Shown here piece by piece: positions 15 through 33,343 of a DNA stretch of 35,361 nucleotides (within the stretch, counting starts at the first letter, position 1; each line of letters begins with the position of its first letter). Under the pieces are notes generated by a model that saw only the letters and a program-made list of their open reading frames with translations, was not told the DNA's origin and searched no databases. This DNA is from Candidatus Omnitrophota bacterium. GTDB lineage: Bacteria; Omnitrophota; 4484-213. Location of the stretch: positions 1-35,361 of the forward strand of contig JAGGUG010000044.1 in assembly GCA_021158625.1 (NCBI GenBank), in the 5' to 3' direction. Both the position numbers and the translations under genes were made by a program.

Positions 15-1562
15 ATGTACTATCCCACTAAACAAGAATTTATAAAAAAAGCAGGTGAAGGCAATTTAATTCCGGTCTGGAAAGAGATTCTTGCTGATGT
101 TGAGACCCCTTTATCTCTGTTCAAGAGATTAGATAGAGGAGGATTTTCTTTTCTGTTAGAATCTGTAGAAAAAGGAGAAAGGTGGGGGCGTTATTCTTTT
201 TTAGGGACTAATCCCTCCTTAGTGTTTAAGAGCAAGGGTCGAGAGGCAGAGATAAGCAAGGATGGAAATCTTAGGAGATTTAAGACAGACCAGCCTTTAA
301 CAGAATTAAAAAAGCTCATCTCTCAATATAAACCAGTAGAGACACAAGACCTGCCCTATTTCTGGGGCGGATTGGTGGGTTATGTAAGTTATGACAGTGT
401 GCGCTTTTTTGAGCCAATTTTAGCCACCGGCGACAAGAATATTGACGATTTCAATCTCCCCGACATCTTTTTTATCCTTGCCGATGAGGTTCTCATCTTT
501 GACCACCTCGAGCAGAAGTTCAAGATTGTAGTTAATGCCGATATAGCAGAAGAGAAAAGAGAGGAGGTGCCAGAAGACAGATTAAGAAAAATATATGAGC
601 AGGCGACCAAAAGAATTGAACAGATTATTCAGGAAATAGGCAAACCTCTAAGAGAAAAACCGCTTCCACTTTCTCCTAATTTAAAAAGAGAGGATTGGAA
701 AAGCAATTTTTCTCAAGAAGGATTTAAAACGGCAGTCAGTAAAGCAAAGGAGCACATCCTCCAAGGGGATATAATTCAAGTTGTTCTTTCGCAGAGATGG
801 GAAAGAGAACTTGATTGTTCGCCTCTGAATATCTACCGCGCCCTGCGCTGCATCAATCCCTCGCCCTATATGTTTTACCTGAATTTTAAAGAGGTAAAGC
901 TAATCGGCTCTTCGCCGGAAATCCTGGTGCGTTCTCAGGGTGGGAAAGCAGAGCTGAGGCCAATCGCCGGCACCCGTCGGCGAGGCGAAGACCCGGCGGA
1001 AGACGCAGAGTTAATCAAGGAGTTATTAAATGACCCTAAAGAAAAGGCCGAGCACATTATGCTGGTGGATTTGGGCCGAAATGACCTTGGGCGGGTCTGC
1101 GAGTACAACAGTATTTCTATCCCGGAGTTAATGGTCATTGAAAAATATTCTCATGTGATGCACATTGTCTCTCAATGTGAAGGGAGATTAAGAAGGGATA
1201 AAGATGTCTTTGATTTGTTTAAAGCCTGTTTTCCGGCCGGCACTGTGAGTGGTGCTCCTAAGATAAGGGCGATGCAGATAATTGAGGAGCTGGAGAAAAA
1301 CAAGAGGGGACCTTATGCCGGGGCAGTAGGCTATTTTGGTTTTTCAGGGAATCTGGACTCCTGTATTGCCATCAGGACAATATTGGTAAAAGACAGCAAG
1401 GTTTATATCCAGGCCGGGGCAGGTATTGTCGCTGATTCTCAGCCGGAAAGGGAATATAAGGAGACGATAAATAAGGCCGAGGCGATGAAAGAGGCGGTAG
1501 AGATGGCGAGAGAATGGGAAGTTAAAATCACAAATTCCAAATCACAAACAAATTCCAATTGA
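15..1562 (+). CDS. trpE: Anthranilate synthase component I / chorismate-binding enzyme
   Basis: 515 aa ORF with chorismate-binding motifs (IAGTRRRGEDPAEDAEL, HIMLVDLGRNDLGRV, FPAGTVSGAPKIRAMQIIEELE, AGAGIVADSQPEREYKET). The C-terminal tail KITNSKSQTNSN is encoded by a 7-nt repeat array. Confidence 0.95.
   Translation: MYYPTKQEFIKKAGEGNLIPVWKEILADVETPLSLFKRLDRGGFSFLLESVEKGERWGRYSFLGTNPSLVFKSKGREAEISKDGNLRRFKTDQPLTELKKLISQYKPVETQDLPYFWGGLVGYVSYDSVRFFEPILATGDKNIDDFNLPDIFFILADEVLIFDHLEQKFKIVVNADIAEEKREEVPEDRLRKIYEQATKRIEQIIQEIGKPLREKPLPLSPNLKREDWKSNFSQEGFKTAVSKAKEHILQGDIIQVVLSQRWERELDCSPLNIYRALRCINPSPYMFYLNFKEVKLIGSSPEILVRSQGGKAELRPIAGTRRRGEDPAEDAELIKELLNDPKEKAEHIMLVDLGRNDLGRVCEYNSISIPELMVIEKYSHVMHIVSQCEGRLRRDKDVFDLFKACFPAGTVSGAPKIRAMQIIEELEKNKRGPYAGAVGYFGFSGNLDSCIAIRTILVKDSKVYIQAGAGIVADSQPEREYKETINKAEAMKEAVEMAREWEVKITNSKSQTNSN
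1525..1559. repeat. Heptad array AAATCAC-AAATTCC-AAATCAC-AAAC-AAATTCC at the trpE 3' end
   Basis: Consecutive 7-nt units read directly; overlaps the last codons of trpE. Confidence 0.75.
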
Positions 1563-1618
1563 CCCTGTTAAATGCCGCTTCGTGGCAATTTCCCTCTGGC
1601 GGAATTATTTAACAGGGT
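1562..1618. repeat. Palindromic element, ACCCTGTTAAAT / ATTTAACAGGGT ends
   Basis: Perfect 12-nt inverted termini (1562-1573, 1607-1618); starts at the trpE stop codon. Confidence 0.85.
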
Positions 1619-5120: not shown

Positions 5121-5792
5121 ATGTTCAAAATAGTTTTAGCCACTAAAAATCTGAATAAAAAAAGAGAAATAGAGGAGATAATTAGATTAAAAGATATTTA
5201 CCCTGTTAAGTCCCCGCCAAGGCGGGGAGCGGCAAAGCCGCTATTTAACGGGGTAAGGTTCTTATCTCTCGCTGATTATCCCTCTTTTCCTGAAATAGAA
5301 GAGGACGGGAAAGATTTTAGAGAGAATGCAATAAAGAAGGCTTTAGCCACGGCCAATTTTACTCAGGAACTTGCTTTGGCTGATGACTCCGGCTTAGAAG
5401 TAGAAGTATTAAAAGGGGAACCGGGAATCCATTCAGCCCGCTTCGCTGGTGAGAAAAAAGACGATAGAGCGAACATCAAAAAACTCTTGGAGCTATTAAA
5501 GGGCGTTCCTCAAGAAAAACGCCAGGCTAAGTTTAGATGCGTGATTGCTCTGGCTAAACCAGGAAGAGTGATTAAAGTAGCAGAAGGGGTTTGTAAAGGG
5601 TTTATTACCTTTGAACCGAAAGGGAATTTTGGCTTTGGGTATGACCCGGTTTTCTTCCTGCCTTCTTATAATAAGACATTTGCGGAGTTGGACCCGCAAA
5701 TAAAAAACCAAATCAGTCATCGAGCAAAGGCGATAGAGAAAATAAACCAATCATTGCAAAATATAAAATTAGCATTGCGAAATGCAAAATGA
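5121..5792 (+). CDS. rdgB: XTP/dITP (non-canonical purine NTP) pyrophosphatase carrying an in-frame palindromic insertion
   Basis: MFKIVLATKNLNKKREIEEI, EEDGKDFRENAIKKALATA, ALADDSGLEVEVLKGEPGIHSARFAGE, GFGYDPVFF; extra segment YPVKSPPRRGAAKPLFNGVR. Confidence 0.93.
   Translation: MFKIVLATKNLNKKREIEEIIRLKDIYPVKSPPRRGAAKPLFNGVRFLSLADYPSFPEIEEDGKDFRENAIKKALATANFTQELALADDSGLEVEVLKGEPGIHSARFAGEKKDDRANIKKLLELLKGVPQEKRQAKFRCVIALAKPGRVIKVAEGVCKGFITFEPKGNFGFGYDPVFFLPSYNKTFAELDPQIKNQISHRAKAIEKINQSLQNIKLALRNAK
5200..5254. repeat. Palindromic element inserted in-frame in rdgB
   Basis: ACCCTGTTAA(5200-5209)/TTAACGGGGT(5245-5254) with two internal hairpins: CCCCGCC-aa-GGCGGGG (5212-5227) and AGCGGC-aaa-GCCGCT (5228-5242). 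Confidence 0.9.
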
Positions 5793-5851: not shown

Positions 5852-5929
5852 CGGGATGTAGCGCAGCTTGGTTAGCGCGCCTGGTTTGGGACCAGGAAGT
5901 CGCCAGTTCAAATCTGGCCATCCCGACCA
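5852..5929 (+). tRNA. tRNA-Pro (anticodon UGG), CCA encoded
   Basis: Acceptor CGGGATG/CATCCCG, D stem GCGC/GCGC, anticodon arm CCTGG-TTTGGGA-CCAGG, T arm GCCAG-TTCAAAT-CTGGC, ACCA end. Confidence 0.95.
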
Positions 5930-5948
5930 ATTATTACAACAATATATA

Positions 5949-6599
5949 ATGAAAATAGTAGAAAGACAGAAAGCCATAGAATTAAGAGAGAAAGGTTTGA
6001 CTTATAGTGAGATTAGGCAGCGTTTAGATATCTCTAGGGGTTCCCTTAGTTTATGGTTACACGACATTCCTTTTGTTCTAAGTGAGAGGAGACGTAATAG
6101 ACGAAGACTAGCTAGTTTTCGCAATAGTCAAGTATTACATAAACGGAAAATCCAAAGAGTTTCTCAGATTATGAGAGCAGCAAAAGAAGAGATGCTAAAT
6201 ACAAAACTTGATGAATTAAAGTTGCTTGGAGCTATGGCATATTGGACTGAAGGCTCTAAGACAAGAGACAGCTTAGTAAAAATTACCAATTCTAATCCAG
6301 ACTTTATTAAATTTGTTCTCAAATGGCTGCGAGAAATTTGTGGTGTATCTGAAAAGAAATTACGAGTTCATCTGCGCATACATGGTGATTTAAACAAAAA
6401 AGAAGCAGAGCAATATTGGTCAAAAATAACCGGAATTCCTTTGAATAGATTCTATAAGACAACTTACAAAATAAGTGCTTCTAACGGTAAACGGTATAAT
6501 AAGCTTAAATATGGAATTGCTAGTATAATAGTATGTGACACAAATTTATTCTATAGAATTATGGGATGGATTGAGGGTATGGTCGAAAGGATAAAATAG
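5949..6599 (+). CDS. HTH protein with a possible LAGLIDADG-like C-terminal domain
   Basis: N-terminal HTH (AIELREKGLTYSEIRQRLDISRGSLSLWLHDI) and a LKLLGAMAYWTEGSK...VKITNSNPDFIKFVLKWLREICG segment. The ATG at 5949 lies after the tRNA; the ORF-track start lies inside the tRNA. Confidence 0.6.
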   Translation: MKIVERQKAIELREKGLTYSEIRQRLDISRGSLSLWLHDIPFVLSERRRNRRRLASFRNSQVLHKRKIQRVSQIMRAAKEEMLNTKLDELKLLGAMAYWTEGSKTRDSLVKITNSNPDFIKFVLKWLREICGVSEKKLRVHLRIHGDLNKKEAEQYWSKITGIPLNRFYKTTYKISASNGKRYNKLKYGIASIIVCDTNLFYRIMGWIEGMVERIK

Positions 6600-7779: not shown

Positions 7780-8391
7780 ATGTTTAAAAAAGGACTAATT
7801 TTGGGAATAATTTCTTTTGTTGCCGCTGTTTTGCTTTCGTTTACCTATATCTTAACCAAGCCGATTATTGCCCAACAGAGCTTAAAGAGTGAAGAGGAGG
7901 CTATCTCTGCATTTTTGCCCAATGTAGATAGAATAGAAAAGATAGAAAAGGAAGGAAAGGTTTGCCCCGTTAGAAAAAACCATATTCGTAAAGGTGAGGA
8001 TGACAAAGGGGATTATAAAGAGAGAGAGGGGGAGGATGAGGGTCGTAAGTTTTCTAACGGGGTTTATTATAAATGCTATAGCCAGGGCAAATTAGTCGGT
8101 TATGCACTCATTGCCTCTGCTTCTGGTTACAGCAGTGAAATCAAAGTGATGATAGCCCTGGATAAAGATAAAGTAATAAAAGGAATTAAGATTTTGGAGG
8201 AGAAGGAAACACCGGGATTGGGGTCAAAGATTAGCGATGATTACTTTACAGGACAGTTTAAAGATAAGAAAGCCGGGGAACTAATATTAGGAGAAAGTAT
8301 TGAAGCAATTAGTGGAGCAACTATTTCTTCCAGAGCAGTGATAGAGGCGGTAAAGAAGGAAGTGGAGAGATTTCAAATCGTCAATCGTTGA
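7780..8391 (+). CDS. rnfG: Rnf complex subunit G (FMN-binding), with an in-frame palindrome-flanked insertion
   Basis: N-terminal TM, KILEEKETPGLGSKI, FMN attachment motif SGATISSRAVIEAVKK. Confidence 0.9.
   Translation: MFKKGLILGIISFVAAVLLSFTYILTKPIIAQQSLKSEEEAISAFLPNVDRIEKIEKEGKVCPVRKNHIRKGEDDKGDYKEREGEDEGRKFSNGVYYKCYSQGKLVGYALIASASGYSSEIKVMIALDKDKVIKGIKILEEKETPGLGSKISDDYFTGQFKDKKAGELILGESIEAISGATISSRAVIEAVKKEVERFQIVNR
7965..8062. repeat. Palindrome-bounded insertion in rnfG
   Basis: Perfect 13-nt inverted repeat CCCCGTTAGAAAA (7965-7977) / TTTTCTAACGGGG (8050-8062). Confidence 0.88.
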
Positions 8392-14978: not shown

Positions 14979-16361
14979 ATGACTACAAAAAAAATGTGGG
15001 GCGGGAGGTTTAAAAAAAAGACCGATTCGGATGTAGAAAGGTTTACTAAATCAATAGATTATGATTATAAATTAGCTAAATATGATGTATATGGTTCTTT
15101 GTTGCATGTATTCGTATTAAATGCGTGTGGATTTTTAACAAAGGAAGAGGAAAAAAGTATGTCTAATGCTCTTCGTAAGATATATAATGATATTGTAAGT
15201 GGGAAGTTTAAGTATAATAAAAGGAGTGAAGATATTCATACTGATATTCAAAATAAAGTAGAGAAAGAAGTTGGTCCTTTATCTCTGAAACTGCATACAG
15301 CAAGGTCAAGGAATGACCAGGTTCTTTTTGATTTAAAGCTTTTTTGCAGAGATGAATTACTTTATGTTGGGAAATTATGCAAAGAATTGCAGAATTCTAT
15401 ATTGGAAATTTGCGAAGAACATAAAGAAACATTTATTCCCGGCTATACGCATTTGCAGCATGCCCAGATTGTTCGTTTAAAAGATTATTTAGGAAGCTAC
15501 GCCGAGATGTTCAAAAGGGATCTGGATAGATTAGATAATACGAGAGAAAGAATAAGATTGACTTTGGGTTCGGGGGCCCTTGCCGGCACGCCTATTGGTT
15601 CTACTTTGTATCAGGAAATGGCGAAAAAATTTGTTCGGGAACATAAAGAGTTAAAAGAAATTTTCAGCACAGAACATATTGACAAAGTTTCAAATACATT
15701 GGATACGGTTAGCGATAGAGATTTTGTTATTGAAGTTTTATCGGTATTATCAATAATGGGTATGCATTTATCAAGATTTGCCGAGGACCTAATTATTTGG
15801 TCAACAAAGGAATTTGGTTTTGTGGAGATTGATGACGCCTTTGCTACCGGGAGTTCTCTGATGCCCCAGAAGAAAAATCCGGATGTTCTTGAATTAATAA
15901 GGGCCTATACTGGAACCCTGTATGGCAATCTAATGAGCGTTTTGACAATGATGAAAGGACTGCCGCTTACTTATAACCGGGATATGCAGTTGGATAAACC
16001 GCCATTGTTTAGTTCATTTGAAATAATAGAACAAGAGTTAAAAATTTTCCCCAAGCTTATAAAAACACTAAAGTGGAATAAAAAAACTATTGAAAAGGCA
16101 ATAGAAAACGATGAAACCCTGTATGCTACAGACCTTGTTTATTATCTTATCAAAAAGGGTATTGCGTTTAAGCAGGCGCACGACATTATTGGAAAATTGA
16201 TTAAATTTTCTTTAGATAGCAGCAGAAAGATAAAGGAAATGAGCAATATAGAGTTAAAGAGATTTTCTGACAGATTGAAACAGGAAGAGATAGTTAAATT
16301 GCTGGATCCTGAGACATCGGTTAAATCAAGAGAATCGGTTGTTAGAACAAGCAATGTCTAA
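14979..16361 (+). CDS. argH: Argininosuccinate lyase
   Basis: MWGGRFKKKTDSDVERF, HTARSRNDQVLFD, TGSSLMPQKKNPDVLELIRA. Confidence 0.95.
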   Translation: MTTKKMWGGRFKKKTDSDVERFTKSIDYDYKLAKYDVYGSLLHVFVLNACGFLTKEEEKSMSNALRKIYNDIVSGKFKYNKRSEDIHTDIQNKVEKEVGPLSLKLHTARSRNDQVLFDLKLFCRDELLYVGKLCKELQNSILEICEEHKETFIPGYTHLQHAQIVRLKDYLGSYAEMFKRDLDRLDNTRERIRLTLGSGALAGTPIGSTLYQEMAKKFVREHKELKEIFSTEHIDKVSNTLDTVSDRDFVIEVLSVLSIMGMHLSRFAEDLIIWSTKEFGFVEIDDAFATGSSLMPQKKNPDVLELIRAYTGTLYGNLMSVLTMMKGLPLTYNRDMQLDKPPLFSSFEIIEQELKIFPKLIKTLKWNKKTIEKAIENDETLYATDLVYYLIKKGIAFKQAHDIIGKLIKFSLDSSRKIKEMSNIELKRFSDRLKQEEIVKLLDPETSVKSRESVVRTSNV

Positions 16362-17673
16362 TTTTAAATACAAAAGAAATCAACTATACTGCGAGGCTGT
16401 TCCTCTAAAGCAGATTGCTGAGAGCGCAGGGACACCTGTTTATATCTATAGCTATCAAAGTTTAGTTGGTAGATATAAGGAGTTAAAACAAGCATTTGCT
16501 TCTGCTCATCCACTTATCTGCTTTTCGGTAAAAGCAAATTCCAATCTAACAATTTGCAAGGTGCTTAGCGAGCAAGGAGCAGGTCTGGATATTGTTTCCG
16601 GGGGCGAACTTTATCGAGCAAAAAAAATCAAAGTCGATCCCAAAAAGATTGTTTTTGCCGGTGCAGGAAAAACAGAAGAAGAGATAAGAGAGGCGATTAA
16701 AGCAAAGATTTTGCTTATCAATGCCGAATCAGAACAAGAAGTAGAAGAGATTGATAGGATTGCCGGCGAATTAGGAAGGAAGATACGGGTTGGCTTACGG
16801 ATAAATCCTGATGTTCCCGGCGGAGGGCATCGCTATATTCAGACAGCCAAAGAAGAGAATAAATTCGGGATTTCCTTAAAAGAAGCAAAAGAGCTCTTTT
16901 TAAAGAAAGAGAAATTTTCCCATCTGAATATTTGCGGAATTCATTTTCATTTGGGTTCACAGATAACTACACCTCAGCCTTTTGTGAGAGCATTAAAAAA
17001 AATTGTTCCTTTAATCCAGGAACTCAAAAAGAAAGGAGTAGAGATAAGTTATTTAGACATTGGCGGCGGATTTTTTGGAGTGGCTAATAAATTTGCTCGG
17101 GCGATTCTGCCTTTGGTAAAAGGCTTAGAGATAAACCCCGTTAGAAGTAAGTCCCGATTTATGGGGACTGCTCCGGCTGAACATCAGGGGACTTCTAACG
17201 GGGTAAAATTAATATTAGAACCGGGGAGATTCTTGACAGCCGAAAGCGGGATTTTGCTGACCAAGGTGCTTTATATTAAGAAAAGAGAAGAGGGCAAAAG
17301 ATTTATTATTGTAGACGCCGGAATGAACGACTTTATTCGCCCTGCTTTGTATAACGCGTATCACGAGGTTATCCCTGTTGTCCGAAAACCGCTCAACCCT
17401 CAACCCTCAACCCTCAGCGATGTTGTCGGGCCGGTTTGTGAAAGTGGAGATTTCTTTGCCAAAGACAGAAATTTACCTTTGCTAAAAAGCGGAGACTTTT
17501 TGGCAGTAATGGAGAGTGGAGCCTATGGATTTGTAATGGCTTCTAATTACAACTCCCGTCCCCGCCCGGCTGAAATTTTAGTAAAAGAAGATAAATTTTA
17601 TCTGATTCGGGAAAGAGAAAGATATAGAGATTTAATCCGTGGAGAGTTAACTATGGAGGGTAGCCCTCCATAG
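16354..17673 (+). CDS. lysA: Diaminopimelate decarboxylase with an in-frame palindromic insertion
   Basis: CFSVKANSNLTICKVLSEQGAGLDIVSGGEL, GIHFHLGSQI, YLDIGGGFF, VVGPVCESGDFFAKDR; extra segment INPVRSKSRFMGTAPAEHQGTSNGVK. The ORF track start is 16339. Confidence 0.94.
   Translation: MSNFKYKRNQLYCEAVPLKQIAESAGTPVYIYSYQSLVGRYKELKQAFASAHPLICFSVKANSNLTICKVLSEQGAGLDIVSGGELYRAKKIKVDPKKIVFAGAGKTEEEIREAIKAKILLINAESEQEVEEIDRIAGELGRKIRVGLRINPDVPGGGHRYIQTAKEENKFGISLKEAKELFLKKEKFSHLNICGIHFHLGSQITTPQPFVRALKKIVPLIQELKKKGVEISYLDIGGGFFGVANKFARAILPLVKGLEINPVRSKSRFMGTAPAEHQGTSNGVKLILEPGRFLTAESGILLTKVLYIKKREEGKRFIIVDAGMNDFIRPALYNAYHEVIPVVRKPLNPQPSTLSDVVGPVCESGDFFAKDRNLPLLKSGDFLAVMESGAYGFVMASNYNSRPRPAEILVKEDKFYLIRERERYRDLIRGELTMEGSPP
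17135..17204. repeat. Palindromic element inserted in-frame in lysA
   Basis: Perfect 14-nt termini ACCCCGTTAGAAGT (17135-17148) / ACTTCTAACGGGGT (17191-17204); inner hairpin AGTCCC/GGGACT (17150-17169). Confidence 0.92.
17392..17419. repeat. In-frame heptad array CTCAACC x3 plus CTCAGCG in lysA
   Basis: Direct reading; encodes PLNPQPSTLS. Confidence 0.9.
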
Positions 17674-17684: not shown

Positions 17685-18674
17685 ATGCAGAGAATAAATT
17701 TCGTAAAAGCAGTTGCTTCGGGGAATGATTTTATAATTATTGATGCTACTCGCTACCCGCTACCCGCTACCCGTCTTTATAAAAAACTTGCTAAAGAACT
17801 TTGTAAAAGGAAATTTGGAATTGGCGCAGATGGACTCTTATTAGTTGAGCCCTCTCAGAAGGCAGATTTCAGGATGCGCATTTTTAATCCTGACGGCAGC
17901 GAAGCCGAGATGTGCGGGAATGGAGCGCGCTGTGCGGCACTACACGCTACACGCAAAAGAACACAAGAAAAAAAAATAAAAATAGAGACGAAGGCAGGAA
18001 TTGTAGAGGCGGAAATTCAAACCCGCTACCCGCAAAATATAAAGATAAAAATGCCGCAACCTAAAAATTTTAAACTTGATATTCCTCTAAAAATTGACAA
18101 CAAAAGCATATCAGTGAGTTTTGTTAATCTCGGTGTCCCACACGCAGTCGTCTTTGTTAAAAATTTAGAAAAAGTTGATGTTCAGAATTTGGGCAGAAAG
18201 ATTCGCGAGCATCAAGAATTTCAGCCCGAGGGAACAAATGTTAATTTCGTCCAGGTATTGACTGGCGAGACTGTCCGCATCAGGACTTACGAGCGTGGCG
18301 TAGAGGAGGAGACGCTTTCTTGCGGCACGGGGAGCGTAGCCGCTGCGATTATCGCAGAGCGCAAAGCGCAGAGCACAAAGCGCAAACTACCCCGAACAGC
18401 CCCGAACAGCCCCGAAGGGCAAGCCTACGGGGCAGGCAAGACTACGGGACAGGCAGAGCACAAAATCAACCCCGTGGGAAATTTTGCTAAGAACTCTCTG
18501 AATTCCAAAGGTGTATCTCACATAGCAAAGGTGATTTCTAAGAGGGTCAATGTGCACACACAAGGAGAAATATTAAAGGTTTATCTCGATGAGCAATTGA
18601 AGGATGTGTATTTAGAAGGAGAGGCGAGGATTATTTATTTTGGCAGTATAGTTAACGCAACAAAACAAGTCTGA
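17685..18674 (+). CDS. dapF: Diaminopimelate epimerase with several repeat-derived segments
   Basis: AVASGNDFIIID, FNPDGSEAEMCGNGARCAA, EEETLSCGTGSVAAA; long extra segment between the catalytic CGTGS region and VNVHTQGE. Confidence 0.93.
   Translation: MQRINFVKAVASGNDFIIIDATRYPLPATRLYKKLAKELCKRKFGIGADGLLLVEPSQKADFRMRIFNPDGSEAEMCGNGARCAALHATRKRTQEKKIKIETKAGIVEAEIQTRYPQNIKIKMPQPKNFKLDIPLKIDNKSISVSFVNLGVPHAVVFVKNLEKVDVQNLGRKIREHQEFQPEGTNVNFVQVLTGETVRIRTYERGVEEETLSCGTGSVAAAIIAERKAQSTKRKLPRTAPNSPEGQAYGAGKTTGQAEHKINPVGNFAKNSLNSKGVSHIAKVISKRVNVHTQGEILKVYLDEQLKDVYLEGEARIIYFGSIVNATKQV
17746..17773. repeat. In-frame heptad array CTACTCG + CTACCCG x3 in dapF
   Basis: Direct reading; encodes ATRYPLPATR. 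Confidence 0.9.
18354..18388. repeat. In-frame heptad array GCAGAGC-GCAAAGC-GCAGAGC-ACAAAGC-GCAAACT in dapF, followed by AACAGCCCCG decamers
   Basis: Five in-register 7-mers, then a GC-rich repeat with CCCCGAA/TACGGGG segments at about 18389-18455. Confidence 0.82.
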
Positions 18675-27157: not shown

Positions 27158-27214
27158 CGTTATAGCGTAATAAAGTTATAGATTTCAACTCAATAACCCA
27201 ATAACAAAGAAAGA

Positions 27215-27275
27215 CCCTTATTTACCCTTATATTCCCTTATTCACCCTTATTTAGCCTTATTAAAATAAGGGGAG
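27215..27275 (+). repeat. CCCTTAT array with exact 10-nt period, ending in an AATAAGG hairpin
   Basis: CCCTTATTTA-CCCTTATATT-CCCTTATTCA-CCCTTATTTA-GCCTTATTAAAATAAGG. Confidence 0.9.
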
Positions 27276-27303
27276 ACAATAACCCAATAACACAATAACG
27301 AGT

Positions 27304-28521
27304 ATGCCTACTTTCACTTACAAAGCCCGAGATAGCTTTGGTGAACTTATCAGTGGGGCTATAGAAGGTGACAATAAGAAAGCCGTAGCCAAGAGCCTTA
27401 ACAGATTGGGTTATAGTGTTATCCAGATAAGCTTGCAAAAATCACTCCAACCAATCCTCACAGATTTTATCAAGGGTTTTCGTCCCATAAGTAAACAAGA
27501 AATAACCGTCTTTACCAGACAATTGGCTACCCTTAGTCGTTCGGGGATGGCTATATCCCCGGCTCTTTCCATAGCGTGTGAGCAGACCACCAATCCTAAA
27601 TTTCGCCTTATCTTAGGGGATGTGGTTAATCATGTCCAGGGGGGTATGAGCCTCTCAGAAGCCCTCTCAAAATATCCTGAGGTTTTCTCGGATCTGTTTG
27701 TAAATATGGTCAAAGTGGGGGAGACAGGTGGGATTTTAGATAAGGTCCTGGATAGACTGGTTACCTTAAGCACTCAGGAACTCGAAAGGAACACGCGCAT
27801 AAGATCAGCATTAATCTATCCTATAGTTCTGGTAGCTGTTGCCTTCTTGGTAGTAAATTTTCTTCTAATAGGAGTTCTTCCGAAGTTTGTTGCTGTATTT
27901 AGGGCATCTCAGGCGAGATTACCGCTGCCCACCCAGCTTATTCTGAGTTTTAGTTGGATTTTGAGGCATCTGTGGTTACCTCTATTGATTGGTGTGGGGT
28001 GCCTCGCAGTTTGGTTTAAGAGGTACATAAAACAACCTGCAGGAAGATACAGGTTTGATTCGAAGGTTTTAAAACTACCCCTGTTTGGTAAACTTTATAC
28101 TAAAATAATGATATCCCGTTTTACAGGTGTCCTCTCAGCGCTCATCGCCTCAGGAGTTCCCCTGCTTCAAGCCCTGGGCGTTGTGGAGAAGACCATTACC
28201 AATATGGTCATCCGCCGCATAGTTCAGAATATACGCACCTCCATCACTGAAGGACAATCTCTGGCCGGAGCATTTAAGACCAGTGGTTTCTTCCCGCCTA
28301 TGGTTGTCCAGATGATATCGGTAGGAGAAAAGACGGGCAAGCTCGATGAAATGCTTCGGGATATTTCTTCTTTTTATGACCCGGAGATAGAATACACGAT
28401 TAGAAATCTAACTACCCTCTTAGAACCATTTATGTTGTTAGCAATGGGGGCTATGGTTGCCTTCATCGCTTTGTCGGTGTTATTACCGATATTCAACTTG
28501 ATTAAAGTGTTCCGGGGATGA
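27304..28521 (+). CDS. pilC: PilC/GspF-type inner-membrane platform protein
   Basis: MPTFTYKARDSFGELISGAIEGDN, FTRQLATLSRSGMAISPALSIACEQ, VKVGETGGILDKVLDRL, MISVGEKTGKLDEMLRDISSFYDPEIEYTIRNLTTLLEP. Confidence 0.95.
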   Translation: MPTFTYKARDSFGELISGAIEGDNKKAVAKSLNRLGYSVIQISLQKSLQPILTDFIKGFRPISKQEITVFTRQLATLSRSGMAISPALSIACEQTTNPKFRLILGDVVNHVQGGMSLSEALSKYPEVFSDLFVNMVKVGETGGILDKVLDRLVTLSTQELERNTRIRSALIYPIVLVAVAFLVVNFLLIGVLPKFVAVFRASQARLPLPTQLILSFSWILRHLWLPLLIGVGCLAVWFKRYIKQPAGRYRFDSKVLKLPLFGKLYTKIMISRFTGVLSALIASGVPLLQALGVVEKTITNMVIRRIVQNIRTSITEGQSLAGAFKTSGFFPPMVVQMISVGEKTGKLDEMLRDISSFYDPEIEYTIRNLTTLLEPFMLLAMGAMVAFIALSVLLPIFNLIKVFRG

Positions 28522-28523
28522 GT

Positions 28524-28806
28524 ATAACCCTTATTTTCCGGGGATGAGTATGACCCCTATTTACCCTTATAGTCCCTTATTCTTTATTGAGGAAAACCCT
28601 TATTTAATAGAAGTCCCTTATTAAGAGAAAACCCTTATTTACCCTTATTTAATAAGAATCCCTTATTAAGAGAAAACCCTTATTTACCCTTATAGTCCCT
28701 TATTGAGGGAAGACCCTTATTTACCCTTATTTAATAGAAGTCCCTTAATTCGTCCTTATTGAAAATGAAAGAAAGACTTTATTCGCCCTTATTCACCCTT
28801 ACGCCA
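28524..28806 (+). repeat. CCCTTAT array (10/17/18-nt units) upstream of the first prepilin gene
   Basis: About 14 CCCTTAT units counted by eye, all on the + strand. Confidence 0.9.
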
Positions 28807-28808
28807 CT

Positions 28809-29264
28809 ATGAACGCAATAATGAAGAAAGGTTTTACTTTACTCGAGCTTCTAATCGTAATAAGTATAATCGCTATCCTCGCAGCTACGATGATTCCCAA
28901 CTTTATCGGCTTCGATGCAGAAGCAAAACTTGCTGCTACTCAAAGCAACCTTAATACCCTCCGCACTCGCATTGTTCTCTTTAGAACTAAAGAGGGACAT
29001 TATCCCGAAACTCTGGAAGAACTATTAGAGACCACCTATAGCGATATGGGAATAGAACGGCCATATCTGGATAGTATACCTGTGGAGTTCATCTCTTCAA
29101 AGCAGGGAAATGCTGATGTTGAGAACCAGACTTCCGAGGACCCCCTACCCGGAGACGGCGGCTGGGTCTATTTTGTAGACAAAGCAAAAGTAGTTATAGA
29201 CTGGGATATGCCCCTCGATTCAAAATGGGGAAAGTACGAGGGGGAGGTGCCATCGGAATGGTAG
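28809..29264 (+). CDS. Type IV prepilin (major pilin/GspG-like)
   Basis: MNAIMKKGFTLLELLIVISIIAILAATMIPNF, class III signal with G|F cleavage site and E5. Confidence 0.92.
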   Translation: MNAIMKKGFTLLELLIVISIIAILAATMIPNFIGFDAEAKLAATQSNLNTLRTRIVLFRTKEGHYPETLEELLETTYSDMGIERPYLDSIPVEFISSKQGNADVENQTSEDPLPGDGGWVYFVDKAKVVIDWDMPLDSKWGKYEGEVPSEW

Positions 29265-29287
29265 TTCGTTATTGTTATAAACGAAGA

Positions 29288-29337
29288 ACCCTTATTTACC
29301 CTTATTTTCCCTTATCTTCCCTTATTAAAACTAAGGG
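29288..29337 (+). repeat. CCCTTAT array with terminal hairpin
   Basis: CCCTTATTTA-CCCTTATTTT-CCCTTATCTT-CCCTTATTAAAACTAAGGGG. Confidence 0.85.
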
Positions 29338-29355
29338 GAGACAATAAATGACGCA

Positions 29356-29712
29356 ATGAACACAATAACAAACAAGGGGGTTGTGCTGTTAAGCGTTGTA
29401 ATTATTCTGCTGACCATAACCTTAATCGGTGGAAGCCTTGCCGCCTTTTTATCATCGGTTAATATCTCAACGTGCAATATAGCCGACCAAACAAAGGCGC
29501 TATACCTGGCTGAAGCAGGCATTGCTCATGCGATTCATAATCTCCGCACCGAGGCAGGAGAGGGTGGCATCCTGGATAAGACGATTGGACCCATTACTCT
29601 TGGAGAAGGAACCTATCAGGTTTCAGTGGATTTTGCCCAATCGCTGATAACCTCAACCGGGGAGGTGCGCGGAACAAGGCGAACACTCCAGTTTCAGTAT
29701 AAACCCCTATAG
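29356..29712 (+). CDS. Prepilin-like protein, PilX/GspK-like N-terminus
   Basis: MNTITNKGVVLLSVVIILLTITLIGGSLAAFLSS...LYLAEAGIAHAIHNLR (AEAG motif). Confidence 0.75.
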   Translation: MNTITNKGVVLLSVVIILLTITLIGGSLAAFLSSVNISTCNIADQTKALYLAEAGIAHAIHNLRTEAGEGGILDKTIGPITLGEGTYQVSVDFAQSLITSTGEVRGTRRTLQFQYKPL

Positions 29713-29745
29713 CGTTATAGGGTATAGTGTTATAGACGAAGACCT

Positions 29746-29956
29746 TTATTTTCCCTTATTTACCCTTATTTAATAGAAGTCCCTTATTAAGAGAAAACCC
29801 TTATTTAATAAGAATCCCTTATTGAGGAAAACCCTTATTTACCCTTATAGTCCCTTATTGAGGAAAACCCTTATTTACCCTTATTTGATAGAAGTCCCTT
29901 AATTCGTCCTTATTGAAAATGAAAGAAAGACTTTATTCGCCCTTATTCACCCTTAC
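29746..29956 (+). repeat. CCCTTAT array upstream of the third prepilin
   Basis: About 11 units; the 3' part is a near-copy of 28673-28820. Confidence 0.9.
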
Positions 29957-29962
29957 GCCACT

Positions 29963-30379
29963 ATGAACGCAATAACAAATAAAGGTTTTACCTACATCGA
30001 GCTTCTAATAACCCTGGTGATAATGGCGGTTTTGTTTGTCCCGATGATGCAAGTATTTTCCCATTTCCTCCATTCCACCGTGGTATCCCAGGATTTCATA
30101 ACCGCAACAAATTTAGCCAGATGGGAGATGGAGCGGGTCAAAAATCTGAATATGACCAAAGCCCAACTTAGAGAAGCGGGCGATAGCATATATCCGTCGG
30201 GTGAACCGCTTGAGATGAATAATGCAAAGTGGCGGATAAGCAGAAAGGTATTCAAAGAGACTGATCCTCTGGAGGTTCGTGTTTCTGTCTTCCATGACGG
30301 TGAACCCGACAGGCCCCTCGTGACCCTGGTGACGCTAATTGAGGATACGATTTGGGAGGAAATTCGCCCATTGGAATAA
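29963..30379 (+). CDS. Prepilin-like protein (PilV/GspI-like)
   Basis: MNAITNKGFTYIELLITLVIMAVLFVPMMQVFSHFL. Confidence 0.82.
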   Translation: MNAITNKGFTYIELLITLVIMAVLFVPMMQVFSHFLHSTVVSQDFITATNLARWEMERVKNLNMTKAQLREAGDSIYPSGEPLEMNNAKWRISRKVFKETDPLEVRVSVFHDGEPDRPLVTLVTLIEDTIWEEIRPLE

Positions 30380-30382
30380 AGA

Positions 30383-30520
30383 TGTTCCCTTATTCACCCT
30401 TATCAAGGAAGATCCTTATTTTCCCTTATCAAGGAAACTCCCTTATCAAAGGAAGTCCCTTATCAAAGGAAGCCCCTTATTTTCCCTTATCAAGGGACCC
30501 TTATTCACCCTTATCAAACC
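30383..30520 (+). repeat. CCCTTAT / CCCTTATCAAAGGAAG array
   Basis: About 9 units on 10- and 17-nt spacing. Confidence 0.9.
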
Positions 30521-30531
30521 AAGAGGCAGAA

Positions 30532-31746
30532 ATGGTCTATCAACCCAAAGACCCCTTAGGTTTTACCCTAATTGAGCTACTGATTGCTATCGCCATATCG
30601 GTAGTAATTAGCGCGGCGATATACTTCAGTCTGAGTAGTGCCCTGGAGAGCTGGGGATATTCCCGGGACCATCTTGCTCTTCAGAAGGTTATTTCAGAGG
30701 TTATGGACGAAGTTGCGGACGGGACCTTCAGAGCATATGGACTAAAAGACAGTTTAGAAATACTATCAGCGAGCGGGACAAAGATAGAGTTTGTCCCCCC
30801 CTGGACCGACGATACCCATATGTTTATCTCTGGTGACCTAATTTATACCTTGAACCGTCGACCCAAGCCCGGGTCGGCAGTGCCAGTTGGAGAGGTTAAA
30901 TTCCCCGGCTCAGATGAGTATCGAACCATACCCGTAACTCTTGTTGAAACAGAATTTATAAAAGAACCTCAGGTTAAGATTGGCTTGGTGCCGCCTGAAG
31001 GGAGCCAACTTCGCTTTACCTACCATCCTGACCCCAAAACAAACCCCGATACAATAAAGACTATCTGGTGGGACCCGGAGGAGCAACAACTCTATTCAGA
31101 GGATATAGATGGGATAGAGAATATCTCTAGGAACCCTCTTGGAGTAAAGCTCACCGATTTTCGCCTGCGATACTACGATAACGCAAATAACCCGGTAGGC
31201 GACCAGGGCGGGCTCGACCAGAATACTCTGCTGACGGTCACCGGAATCGAGGTATGGATGAAGGCTGAACTTGGCCAATATTCACAAGAATTAGTGAGTT
31301 TCGTAAACCTGCGCAATTCACCAATGCGTAAAGGTTTCCTGACTTTAAGAGAAGGCACTAAATTTCCCATTCCTGACAGCCACAACATCCACACCCTTTT
31401 ATTGACCAACTTTTCGGGTGTAGGGAATCTGGACGAACTTCAGCTTGAAGCCACTCCATCCACAGGAAAGAGCTGGGGGGTAACTATAAAGTTTTCAAAA
31501 ACGGGTTCAGCTAAAGCCATAATAGAGACTCTTATTATAGAATATCCACCTGGCCATTCCATCTATACTGAACACCCTCGCTCAAGCGTTGAGCTGGGAT
31601 TGGATCTGCTTACCCTGGGTGCCAATGGCCTCTATGACTACGATGACGACCCGGACATCGAGGACTTTGTCCTGCTGAAGGATGAGGTGGTATTAGAGGT
31701 GAAGAGGATGGATATCGAAGGTGCCGGGCTTTTCGTTAGACCATGA
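30532..31746 (+). CDS. Prepilin-like protein (PilW/GspJ-like)
   Basis: MVYQPKDPLG|FTLIELLIAIAISVVISAAIYFSLSS. The ATG at 30532 is favoured; the longer ORF from 30352 translates the array. Confidence 0.85.
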   Translation: MVYQPKDPLGFTLIELLIAIAISVVISAAIYFSLSSALESWGYSRDHLALQKVISEVMDEVADGTFRAYGLKDSLEILSASGTKIEFVPPWTDDTHMFISGDLIYTLNRRPKPGSAVPVGEVKFPGSDEYRTIPVTLVETEFIKEPQVKIGLVPPEGSQLRFTYHPDPKTNPDTIKTIWWDPEEQQLYSEDIDGIENISRNPLGVKLTDFRLRYYDNANNPVGDQGGLDQNTLLTVTGIEVWMKAELGQYSQELVSFVNLRNSPMRKGFLTLREGTKFPIPDSHNIHTLLLTNFSGVGNLDELQLEATPSTGKSWGVTIKFSKTGSAKAIIETLIIEYPPGHSIYTEHPRSSVELGLDLLTLGANGLYDYDDDPDIEDFVLLKDEVVLEVKRMDIEGAGLFVRP

Positions 31747-31750
31747 AAAG

Positions 31751-32045
31751 ACCCTTATTGAAGGAAGACCCTTATCAAAGGAAGTCTCTTATCAAGGGAA
31801 GCCCCTTATTTCCCCTTATCTCCCTTATTCACCCTTATCAAGGAAACTCCCTTATCAAGGGAAGACCCTTATCAAGGAAAAACCCTTATCTTCCCTTATT
31901 TTCCCTTATTCACCCTTATCCAAGAAAGTCCCTTATCAAAGGAAGACCCTTATCTTCCCTTATTTTCCCTTATCAAGAGACCCTTATCAAAGGAGGACCC
32001 TTATTTTCCCTTATCAAGAGACCCTTATTCACCCTTATCAAACCA
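31751..32045 (+). repeat. Long CCCTTAT / CCCTTATCAAGGGAAG array
   Basis: More than 20 units counted by eye, directional, 10- and 17-nt spacing. Confidence 0.92.
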
Positions 32046-32055
32046 AGAGGCAGAA

Positions 32056-32610
32056 ATGGTCTATCAACCCAAAGACCCCTTAGGTTATAAGAAGCTCCTG
32101 ACCTGGAAACAGGCCGGCGAGATTTATCACAAGACAAAAGATTTTACCAAGAAATACCTCAATAGAACAACAGATAGAAGATTAATTGCTCATATGGATG
32201 ATTCCGCCCGGTCAGTTCAACGTAATATAGAAGAGGGTTATAAAAGGGCAACGACAAAGGAGTATGTTGAATTTCTTGGTTTCTCCCGCGCCTCTTTGGA
32301 AGAATTGAAGGGGGATGTTGAGGAGTTGAAAAGGGAATGGAAAGAAGGGGTAAGATGGGTCGATAAAGGGAAAATAGAGGAGTTGTTGGACCTTATTTAT
32401 GGCGAAGATTGTATGATGGGCAGGCAGATTGCATCTCTGGAGAGGAAGATGGTAGAGGAGAAGACTCTGCCGCAGAAAGAGATGATAATGAGAAGTTGGA
32501 AATTGGATAAATTGAGAGAGAAAAAGTTCTGGAGGTCTATTAAAGATAAATTTGGGCTTGAGAAGGATGAAAAAGGGAGGATAAGAAAGAATGATGATGA
32601 GAAAGAATAA
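32056..32610 (+). CDS. Four-helix-bundle protein (23S rRNA IVS-encoded family) with a pilin-derived N-terminus
   Basis: LLTWKQAGEIYHKTKDFTKKY...DDSARSVQRNIEEGYKRATTKEYVEFLGFSRASLEELKGDVEEL is typical of this family; preceded by MVYQPKDPLG. Confidence 0.82.
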   Translation: MVYQPKDPLGYKKLLTWKQAGEIYHKTKDFTKKYLNRTTDRRLIAHMDDSARSVQRNIEEGYKRATTKEYVEFLGFSRASLEELKGDVEELKREWKEGVRWVDKGKIEELLDLIYGEDCMMGRQIASLERKMVEEKTLPQKEMIMRSWKLDKLREKKFWRSIKDKFGLEKDEKGRIRKNDDEKE

Positions 32611-32619
32611 GGAACAGAT

Positions 32620-32820
32620 TTCCCCTTATTTACCCTTATTAAGGAAACTCCCTTATCAAAGGAAGTCTCTTATCAAGGGAAGACCCTTATCAAGGAAAAA
32701 ACCCTTATCTTCCCTTATTTTCCCTTATTCACCCTTATCAAAGGAAGTCCCTTATCAAGGGAAGCCCCTTATTTTCCCTTATCTTCCCTTATCAAGAGAC
32801 CCTTATTCACCCTTATCAAA
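32620..32820 (+). repeat. CCCTTAT array upstream of the exported protein gene
   Basis: About 14 units. Confidence 0.9.
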
Positions 32821-32833
32821 CCAAGAGGCAGAA

Positions 32834-33343
32834 ATGGTCTATCAACCCAAAAACGCAATAACTCCCGCCTGCCGGACGGGCAGGCAAAAACGCAATAACC
32901 CAATAACAAATAAGTGGCTATCAGTATTATTATTAGTGGTCTTCAGTGTCCTTTTCGCTACGGTTGCCTGTGCTGACGAAAAGGTATGGAGTGCTGGCGG
33001 AGATGAAACGACCTGGAGCGACGACGACAACTGGTTTCCGGCCGTTGAACCCAACAGTGAAGACGATGTCACCATAGATATGGAGGATGCCTCTGTTACT
33101 TGCACCGAGACCTTTAAAGCAAAGTCTATCGTTGTGGGTGGCAGAACGAGTTCGACCCTTACCAGCAACAACTTTGTCTACGGAACAGTAACGCCCGATT
33201 CGGCATCTGATGTGGCATTAGACAATAAAAAGGGCGGCACGATTATCCTGAAGGGTGCTGGAACGCTCACCCTGGGAGGTCAATATAGGAGTTCAGAAGA
33301 ATCTCTCATCTCCGAGCCGAGCTTTATGTTCTGGGTAAAGTAG
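32834..33343 (+). CDS. Small exported protein, probably beta-rich surface protein
   Basis: MVYQPKNAIT...NKWLSVLLLVVFSVLFATVACA|DEKVWSAGGDETTWSDDDNWFPAVEPNSEDDVTID; signal-peptide-like segment. Confidence 0.6.
   Translation: MVYQPKNAITPACRTGRQKRNNPITNKWLSVLLLVVFSVLFATVACADEKVWSAGGDETTWSDDDNWFPAVEPNSEDDVTIDMEDASVTCTETFKAKSIVVGGRTSSTLTSNNFVYGTVTPDSASDVALDNKKGGTIILKGAGTLTLGGQYRSSEESLISEPSFMFWVK

What the first reader, a model, noticed from the sequence alone, without database searches (positions are those of the whole stretch)
5200..5254. RPE-like palindromic element inserted in-frame in rdgB, in the same reading phase as insertions in rnfG and lysA
Seen directly: rdgB carries ACCCTGTTAA...TTAACGGGGT enclosing two GC-rich hairpins, read as YPVKSPPRRGAAKPLFNGVR. 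The other two carriers read CPVRKN...KFSNGVY (rnfG) and NPVRSKSR...TSNGVK (lysA). The left arm is always read as P-V-[K/R] and the right arm as N-G-V, so the phase is conserved. Known RdgB proteins run directly from the first strand/helix to the LSL-DFP segment, so the extra ~20 residues look inserted. In-frame palindromic insertion in housekeeping enzymes is described for Rickettsia palindromic elements; I know of no such description for this sequence family. The T in the left arm would pair G-U in RNA, consistent with selection on a folded form.
Basis: partly seen in the sequence, partly recalled or inferred. Interest (0 to 1): 0.88.

Follow-up and report, generated by a model that had tools for sequence, protein, structure and literature searches.

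The report
Protein-coding mobile palindromes across bacterial phyla
A short mobile DNA palindrome has jumped, without breaking the reading frame, into this bacterium's rdgB and dozens of other housekeeping genes, and the same unnamed element family occurs in many unrelated bacterial phyla.

Summary
rdgB (5121-5792) carries a 55-nt palindrome at 5200-5254 that adds 57 nt in frame. Orthologues in the same genus and family lack it. It belongs to a large family: 45 strict copies in this genome versus 0 for a reversed-pattern control, 20-30 in near relatives, and copies in about ten phyla.

Type B (ACCCCGTTAGA arms) duplicates its target: TNNA-[CCCC…GGGG]-TNNA. Type A (ACCCTGTTAAA arms plus two covarying hairpins, as in rdgB) usually has TNNA on one side and a fixed TGAA on the other. 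Its hairpins are swapped or inverted at orthologous sites. Both add L+2 nt, so copies with L≡1 mod 3 keep frame. Hosts include atpG, dnaE, dxs, holB, ksgA, murG, nusB, infB and pyrD. Two of three phases are used; the third holds a stop. In 39 prepilin genes of 24 Omnitrophota genomes the arm rebuilds the GFTLxEL motif.

Best reading: a non-autonomous, MITE-like element with an unknown mobiliser. It works like Rickettsia palindromic elements but is not one of them.

The parts
5121..5792 (+). rdgB (XTP/dITP diphosphatase), host of the element
   Evidence: NCBIfam NF011397 E 2.4e-75, above cut-off; the match starts after the insert
5199..5255 (+). 57-nt in-frame insertion in rdgB: T + 55-nt type A element (5200-5254) + A; two GC hairpins; adds 19 residues
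   Evidence: empty orthologues G001, G003, G004; filled with other hairpins in G002
7964..8063 (+). type B element in rnfG, 100 nt; duplicated TT on both sides (target TTTA); adds 102 nt = 34 residues
   Evidence: empty site in G001: GGGTTTATTATAAATG; rnfG by TIGR01947
7780..8391 (+). rnfG, host gene
   Evidence: TIGR01947 E 9.9e-32
17135..17204 (+). type B element in lysA, 70 nt, flanked by AA/AA (target TAAA duplicated); adds 72 nt = 24 residues
   Evidence: the best PDB LysA match (2p3e) breaks between query residues 242 and 284, the stretch that holds the insert
16339..17673 (+). lysA, host gene
   Evidence: TIGR01048 E 1.2e-142
1562..1618 (+). type A element, 57 nt, between trpE and the next ORF; its first base completes the trpE TGA stop
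18469..18514 (+). possible decayed copy in dapF (46 nt, read NPVGNFAKNSLNSKGV) inside a ~52-residue stretch absent from G001 dapF
   Evidence: arms have 2 and 3 mismatches, so uncertain

Best explanation
The rdgB segment is one copy of a non-autonomous, MITE-like mobile palindrome. The arms are terminal inverted repeats, and an enzyme encoded elsewhere (not identified) inserts the element at a TNNA site. Type B leaves TNNA on both sides, as a staggered cut and repair would. Type A keeps TNNA on one side and carries a fixed TGAA on the other, and its two hairpins are afterwards exchanged or inverted in place. Each insertion adds L+2 nt. The arms contain a stop in only one of three phases per strand, so a copy with L=1 mod 3 is a translatable 10-35-residue linker in two of three phases. 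Purifying selection removes insertions that break genes and leaves in-frame ones at tolerant sites: protein loops, gene ends, and the leader of prepilins, where the arm plus duplicated TTTA re-creates the GFTLxEL cleavage motif. Shown: sequence family, target duplication, empty sites, frame preservation, covariation, in-place hairpin turnover. Inferred: the enzyme, translation of the linker, and neutrality.
For: Copy number with a zero reversed-pattern control. Type B flank duplication in 61 of 87 copies (23/30 and 38/57) against about 7 of 30 and 9 of 57 by shuffling; left -2/-1 equal right +1/+2 with z 8.6 and 7.8, all other offsets far lower. Clean empty sites in rnfG and at G002 L101. Orthologous empty genes differ by exactly L+2 for SpdSyn, HcyBio, dnaE, dcd, exbB and atpG; ribF (L=56) gains 57. 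Host families confirmed. Copies between long same-strand open runs are in frame in 41 of 56 cases, about 19 expected by chance. Covariation of 27 type A copies: 59 double-change cells versus 19.4 shuffled, 0 of 500. 39 prepilin insertions, 0 in control.
Against: No kb-sized member with a transposase was found: 10 candidate arm pairs flank unrelated genes, and the lone arms examined in a 3.8-Mb genome of another phylum mostly have a degraded mate within 30-300 nt. Type A lacks a simple target duplication, so it may move differently from type B. No expression or proteomic data exist. Single-sequence AlphaFold of RdgB failed (pLDDT 39).
Confidence: 0.84

Rival explanations
1. The extra residues are ancestral, family-specific protein loops that happen to be encoded by palindromic DNA; nothing was inserted.
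For: The inserts are translated in frame in intact genes, and one type A site (rdgB) is shared by G000 and G002.
Against: The same DNA sits in unrelated genes and between genes. Orthologues lack it with flanks intact. Target duplication is present.
Confidence: 0.02
2. The hairpins are skipped by the ribosome, as proposed for byp elements of yeast mitochondria (from memory), or removed from the mRNA, so the protein lacks the linker.
For: Strong hairpins inside open reading frames of essential genes.
Against: Skipping or splicing would not require L+2 to be a multiple of three or an open phase, yet in-gene copies keep both. The ascertainment favours open copies, but the empty-site comparisons do not depend on it.
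Confidence: 0.04
3. REP/BIME-type palindromes moved by a Y1 transposase (RAYT).
For: Type A has two hairpins, no target duplication and one fixed tetranucleotide end, as in single-strand transposition; RAYT genes occur in G000-G002.
Against: RAYT genes in G001 and G002 are flanked by their own, different REP (ACTTNCAC...GTGNAAGT). Y1 genes do not track element number: G046 has 11 Y1 genes and no element; G004 has 1 strict copy and no Y1. Type B has a clean duplication.
Confidence: 0.12
4. Integron attC-like recombination sites: the arms contain GTTRRRY and RYYYAAC-like heptamers.
For: GTTAAAT and ATTTAAC in type A arms fit the heptamers (read from the sequences).
Against: The order is inverted relative to attC; type B GTTAGAA breaks the consensus; copies are single and dispersed, not cassette arrays; a target duplication exists.
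Confidence: 0.02

Closest known systems
Rickettsia palindromic elements (RPE) and related protein-coding palindromes
   Same: Short palindromic dispersed repeats inserted in frame in unrelated housekeeping genes, adding a linker peptide (described in PMC10969869).
   Different: RPEs are ~150 bp in 10 families in Rickettsia (PMC10969869). Here L is mostly 31-115 nt, the arms and host phyla are different, a TNNA target duplication is resolved, two phases are used, and hairpins turn over in place.
Bacterial MITEs (Correia, ERIC, BOX, RUP)
   Same: Non-coding, terminal inverted repeats, target duplication, many copies, no own transposase.
   Different: Family spans about ten phyla, no parental insertion sequence found, and an unusually clear in-frame and prepilin pattern.
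REP/BIME with RAYT
   Same: Hairpin repeats in mosaic and tandem arrangements.
   Different: No tetranucleotide-tagged REP; RAYTs present have their own different REPs; type B duplicates its target.
Mitochondrial double-hairpin elements and byp elements
   Same: Type A anatomy (outer stem plus two hairpins); presence inside genes.
   Different: Bacterial; frame is preserved, so translated rather than bypassed.

Membership tests
Rickettsia palindromic elements | in-frame insertion of a palindrome in many unrelated genes | tested here: met
   about 50 in-frame copies; hosts by NCBIfam/Pfam
Rickettsia palindromic elements | host is Rickettsiales and sequence belongs to an RPE family | tested here: not met
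   hosts found are Omnitrophota, Patescibacteria, Planctomycetota and others; direct alignment with RPE consensus sequences was not done
Rickettsia palindromic elements | length ~150 bp | tested here: not met
   mostly 31-115 nt here; ~150 bp for RPE (PMC10969869)
MITE | terminal inverted repeats, no coding capacity, many copies | tested here: met
MITE | target-site duplication | tested here: met
   type B: TNNA duplicated, 61/87; for type A, including the rdgB copy, not met
MITE | parental transposon with same ends | tested here: inconclusive
   none found in stretches examined; only parts of genomes could be read
REP/RAYT | Y1 transposase flanked by the same repeat | tested here: not met
   RAYT flanked by a different palindrome; one type A copy lies beside that REP in G002
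Integron attC | RYYYAAC...GTTRRRY order in cassette arrays | tested here: not met
   order is GTT...AAC, dispersed single copies
Known Rfam families | match to a curated RNA family | tested here: not met
   only a tRNA at 5852-5926 at gathering threshold

The most novel reading that the evidence does not exclude
A single, ancient or horizontally spread family of protein-coding palindromes, moved by an undescribed enzyme that uses TNNA targets, recurrently builds new in-frame linkers in essential proteins across bacterial phyla. Its type A form is additionally rewritten in place by exchange of whole hairpin modules, a route of protein change not previously described.
Probability: 0.35. Interest if true: 0.88.

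Novelty: new variant of a known kind. Interest (0 to 1): 0.77.

Why it matters
In-frame protein-coding palindromes are best documented in Rickettsia, where a MITE review calls their frequency unusually high and their contribution unexplored (PMC10969869). Here an unnamed family with simple sequence rules (arms, TNNA, L≡1 mod 3) occurs in about ten phyla and sits inside dnaE, atpG, infB, dxs, murG, holB and similar genes. Because the rules are explicit and near relatives provide empty sites, the questions of how such insertions are tolerated, how often they occur and which enzyme makes them become directly testable. The recurrent prepilin insertions are natural replicates of one event. Practically, automated annotation will contain many unexplained 10-35-residue inserts that this family explains.

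Tried and rejected
Single conserved phase: rejected. RNA wobble as evidence for selection on RNA: 6 G·T against 6 A·C, rejected. RAYT as mobiliser: own REPs differ and distribution does not match. attC: heptamer order reversed. Autonomous element between distant arms: 10 candidate arm pairs flank ordinary genes; lone arms in a delta-proteobacterial genome mostly have decayed mates nearby. Phage vehicle: 2 hits in 2.9 million viral contigs. Literature for the arm sequences: no relevant paper; no Omnitrophota or Patescibacteria paper on such palindromes found. AlphaFold of RdgB without alignment: pLDDT 39, unusable. The in-frame enrichment is partly ascertainment, because out-of-frame copies do not appear as long open frames; and the empty sites were added for that reason.

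Full report
Observation. The window is a contig of a 1.18-Mb genome in 128 contigs. The phylum is Omnitrophota: genome G001, assigned to the same genus, coincides contig by contig in length and match position with records titled Candidatus Omnitrophota CSMAG_2090. rdgB is confirmed by NCBIfam, with the match starting after the insert. In PDB RdgB chain 3tqu, residues 4-29 align before the insert and 30-197 after it, so the insert has no counterpart.

Empty sites for rdgB. G001 reads …AAAGATACGGAGTTC…, G003 …AAGAATGTGCATTTT…, G004 likewise without the segment. G000 reads …AAAGATATTT[55 nt]AAGGTTC…; the difference from G001 is 57 nt. G002 has a 61-nt element at the same base, with flanks 95-98% identical but different hairpins.

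Family. The pattern arm-N8-68-arm occurs 45 times in this genome, 28, 30 and 20 times in G001-G003, and 0 times when read backwards. They come from Patescibacteria, Omnitrophota, Planctomycetota, Desulfobacterota and relatives, Cloacimonadota, Bacteroidota, Stahlbacteria/WOR-3, Nitrospinota, Calditrichota and Riflebacteria. The last three have one strict copy each, so they are weaker. Of 93 strict copies, 77 have T at -3 and A at +3. My estimate (not a tool result) of chance matches for the whole collection is below ten.

Two types. Type B has GTTAGA arms. Bases -2/-1 equal +1/+2 with z 8.6 and 7.8 and nothing comparable at other offsets. Because the element begins with A and ends with T, this is best read as a 4-bp duplication: TNNA-[CCC…GGG]-TNNA. 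rnfG shows it cleanly: G001 GGGTTTATTAT, G000 GGTTT[E]TTATTAT. Type A has GTTAAA arms and two inner hairpins and shows no duplication. In SpdSyn the empty site GGTCTATTC becomes GGTCT[E]GAATGC; in HcyBio GAAGTAAATTAT becomes GAAGTTC[E]AAATTAT. One side therefore keeps the target and the other carries TGAA (or TTCA). exbB and atpG look like TT/TT instead, so type A is not uniform, and rdgB itself has TT on one side and AA-G on the other.

Structure. For 27 type A copies of 58 nt the three-helix structure is 98.2% paired (89.0% shuffled), with 59 double-change cells (19.4 shuffled) and 0 of 500 shuffles as high. Sliding the partners destroys it. The hairpins vary while keeping their pairing.

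Turnover. At orthologous sites type A hairpins differ: rdgB 55 vs 61 nt, nusB 52 vs 61, pilM 61 vs 55, and atpG in reversed hairpin order, with flanks largely conserved. holB is identical in G000 and G002. Two type B pairs differ only by a few substitutions. Type A also replaces the inner part of a different palindromic repeat in G001.

Genes. Hosts with family matches include rdgB, rnfG, lysA, atpG, holB, ftsA, dxs, a spermidine-synthase fusion, pilM, a GGDEF regulator, dcd, ksgA, ribF, nusB, HcyBio, mnmA, dnaE, uvrD, an amidohydrolase, lpxB, pcm, exbB and murG (the ftsA and holB matches are below the NCBIfam cut-offs). In other phyla they include an AIR synthase-like protein, an amidase (gatA-like), infB, ksgA, pyrD, DNA polymerase I and carB. 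In-gene copies have L≡1 mod 3 in 49 of 51 cases against 103 of 177 elsewhere. That contrast is partly ascertainment. Taking all copies lying between same-strand open runs of at least 60 codons, 41 of 56 join in frame, of which 33 are open throughout. The remaining cases include copies at gene ends.

Phase. Phase 1 reads xPV[KR]…[FS]N[GR]V (35 copies), phase 0 reads T[PL]L[EN]…LTG (16). Phase 2 meets TAA or TAG in the arm.

Prepilins. The pattern of a type B right arm followed by a GFTLxEL-coding stretch occurs 39 times in 24 of 386 Omnitrophota genomes, with 0 reversed controls. Of 22 read, 16 have an element with L≡1 mod 3, giving …GF-TPLE…LTG-FTLIEL…. The duplicated TTTA plus GGGG rebuilds G-F-T, so the insert lengthens the leader and should leave the mature pilin unchanged. 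This is inference from the known prepilin peptidase motif.

Mobiliser. Not found. Y1 transposases have their own repeats and do not track the element. No transposase-bearing copy was found. Viruses hardly carry it.

Conclusion. It works like RPEs and MITEs; it is not a member of the RPE families on host or length. No prior description was found in the open-access library searched, which is not proof of novelty.

Noticed in passing
window 17685-18674 (dapF): About 52 residues (233-284) absent from G001 DapF, containing NPVGNFAKNSLNSKGV (possibly a decayed element copy) and repeated CCCCGAACAG / CTACGGGACAGG filler.
   Followed up: partly
window 27192-32860: Dense array of a short CCCTTAT-type decamer between and inside pilin-like ORFs, translated in several ORFs (e.g. 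31721-32090, 32591-33343).
   Followed up: no
L046, L006, L009 (own genome): A second palindromic repeat, TTAGTTGAATTT[ACCC-stem...GGGT]TCAATGCGTTCA, with variable but self-complementary stems; in G001 its inner part is a type A element.
   Followed up: partly
L345, L098 (G001:C42, G002:C32): RAYT genes bounded by their own REP (ACTTNCAC...GTGNAAGT); in G002 a type A element lies directly next to one REP copy.
   Followed up: partly
L013, L040, L046: An element nested inside another element (58 nt within an 87+ nt copy), in three near-identical copies.
   Followed up: no
L385-L388 (G058, a delta-proteobacterium): Longer type B copies of 195-270 nt with GC-rich internal repeats; this genome has over 100 arms on each strand.
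   Followed up: partly
window 5852-5926: A tRNA gene (anticodon reads TGG by eye); ORF 5868-6599 in the ORF list begins inside it.
   Followed up: no
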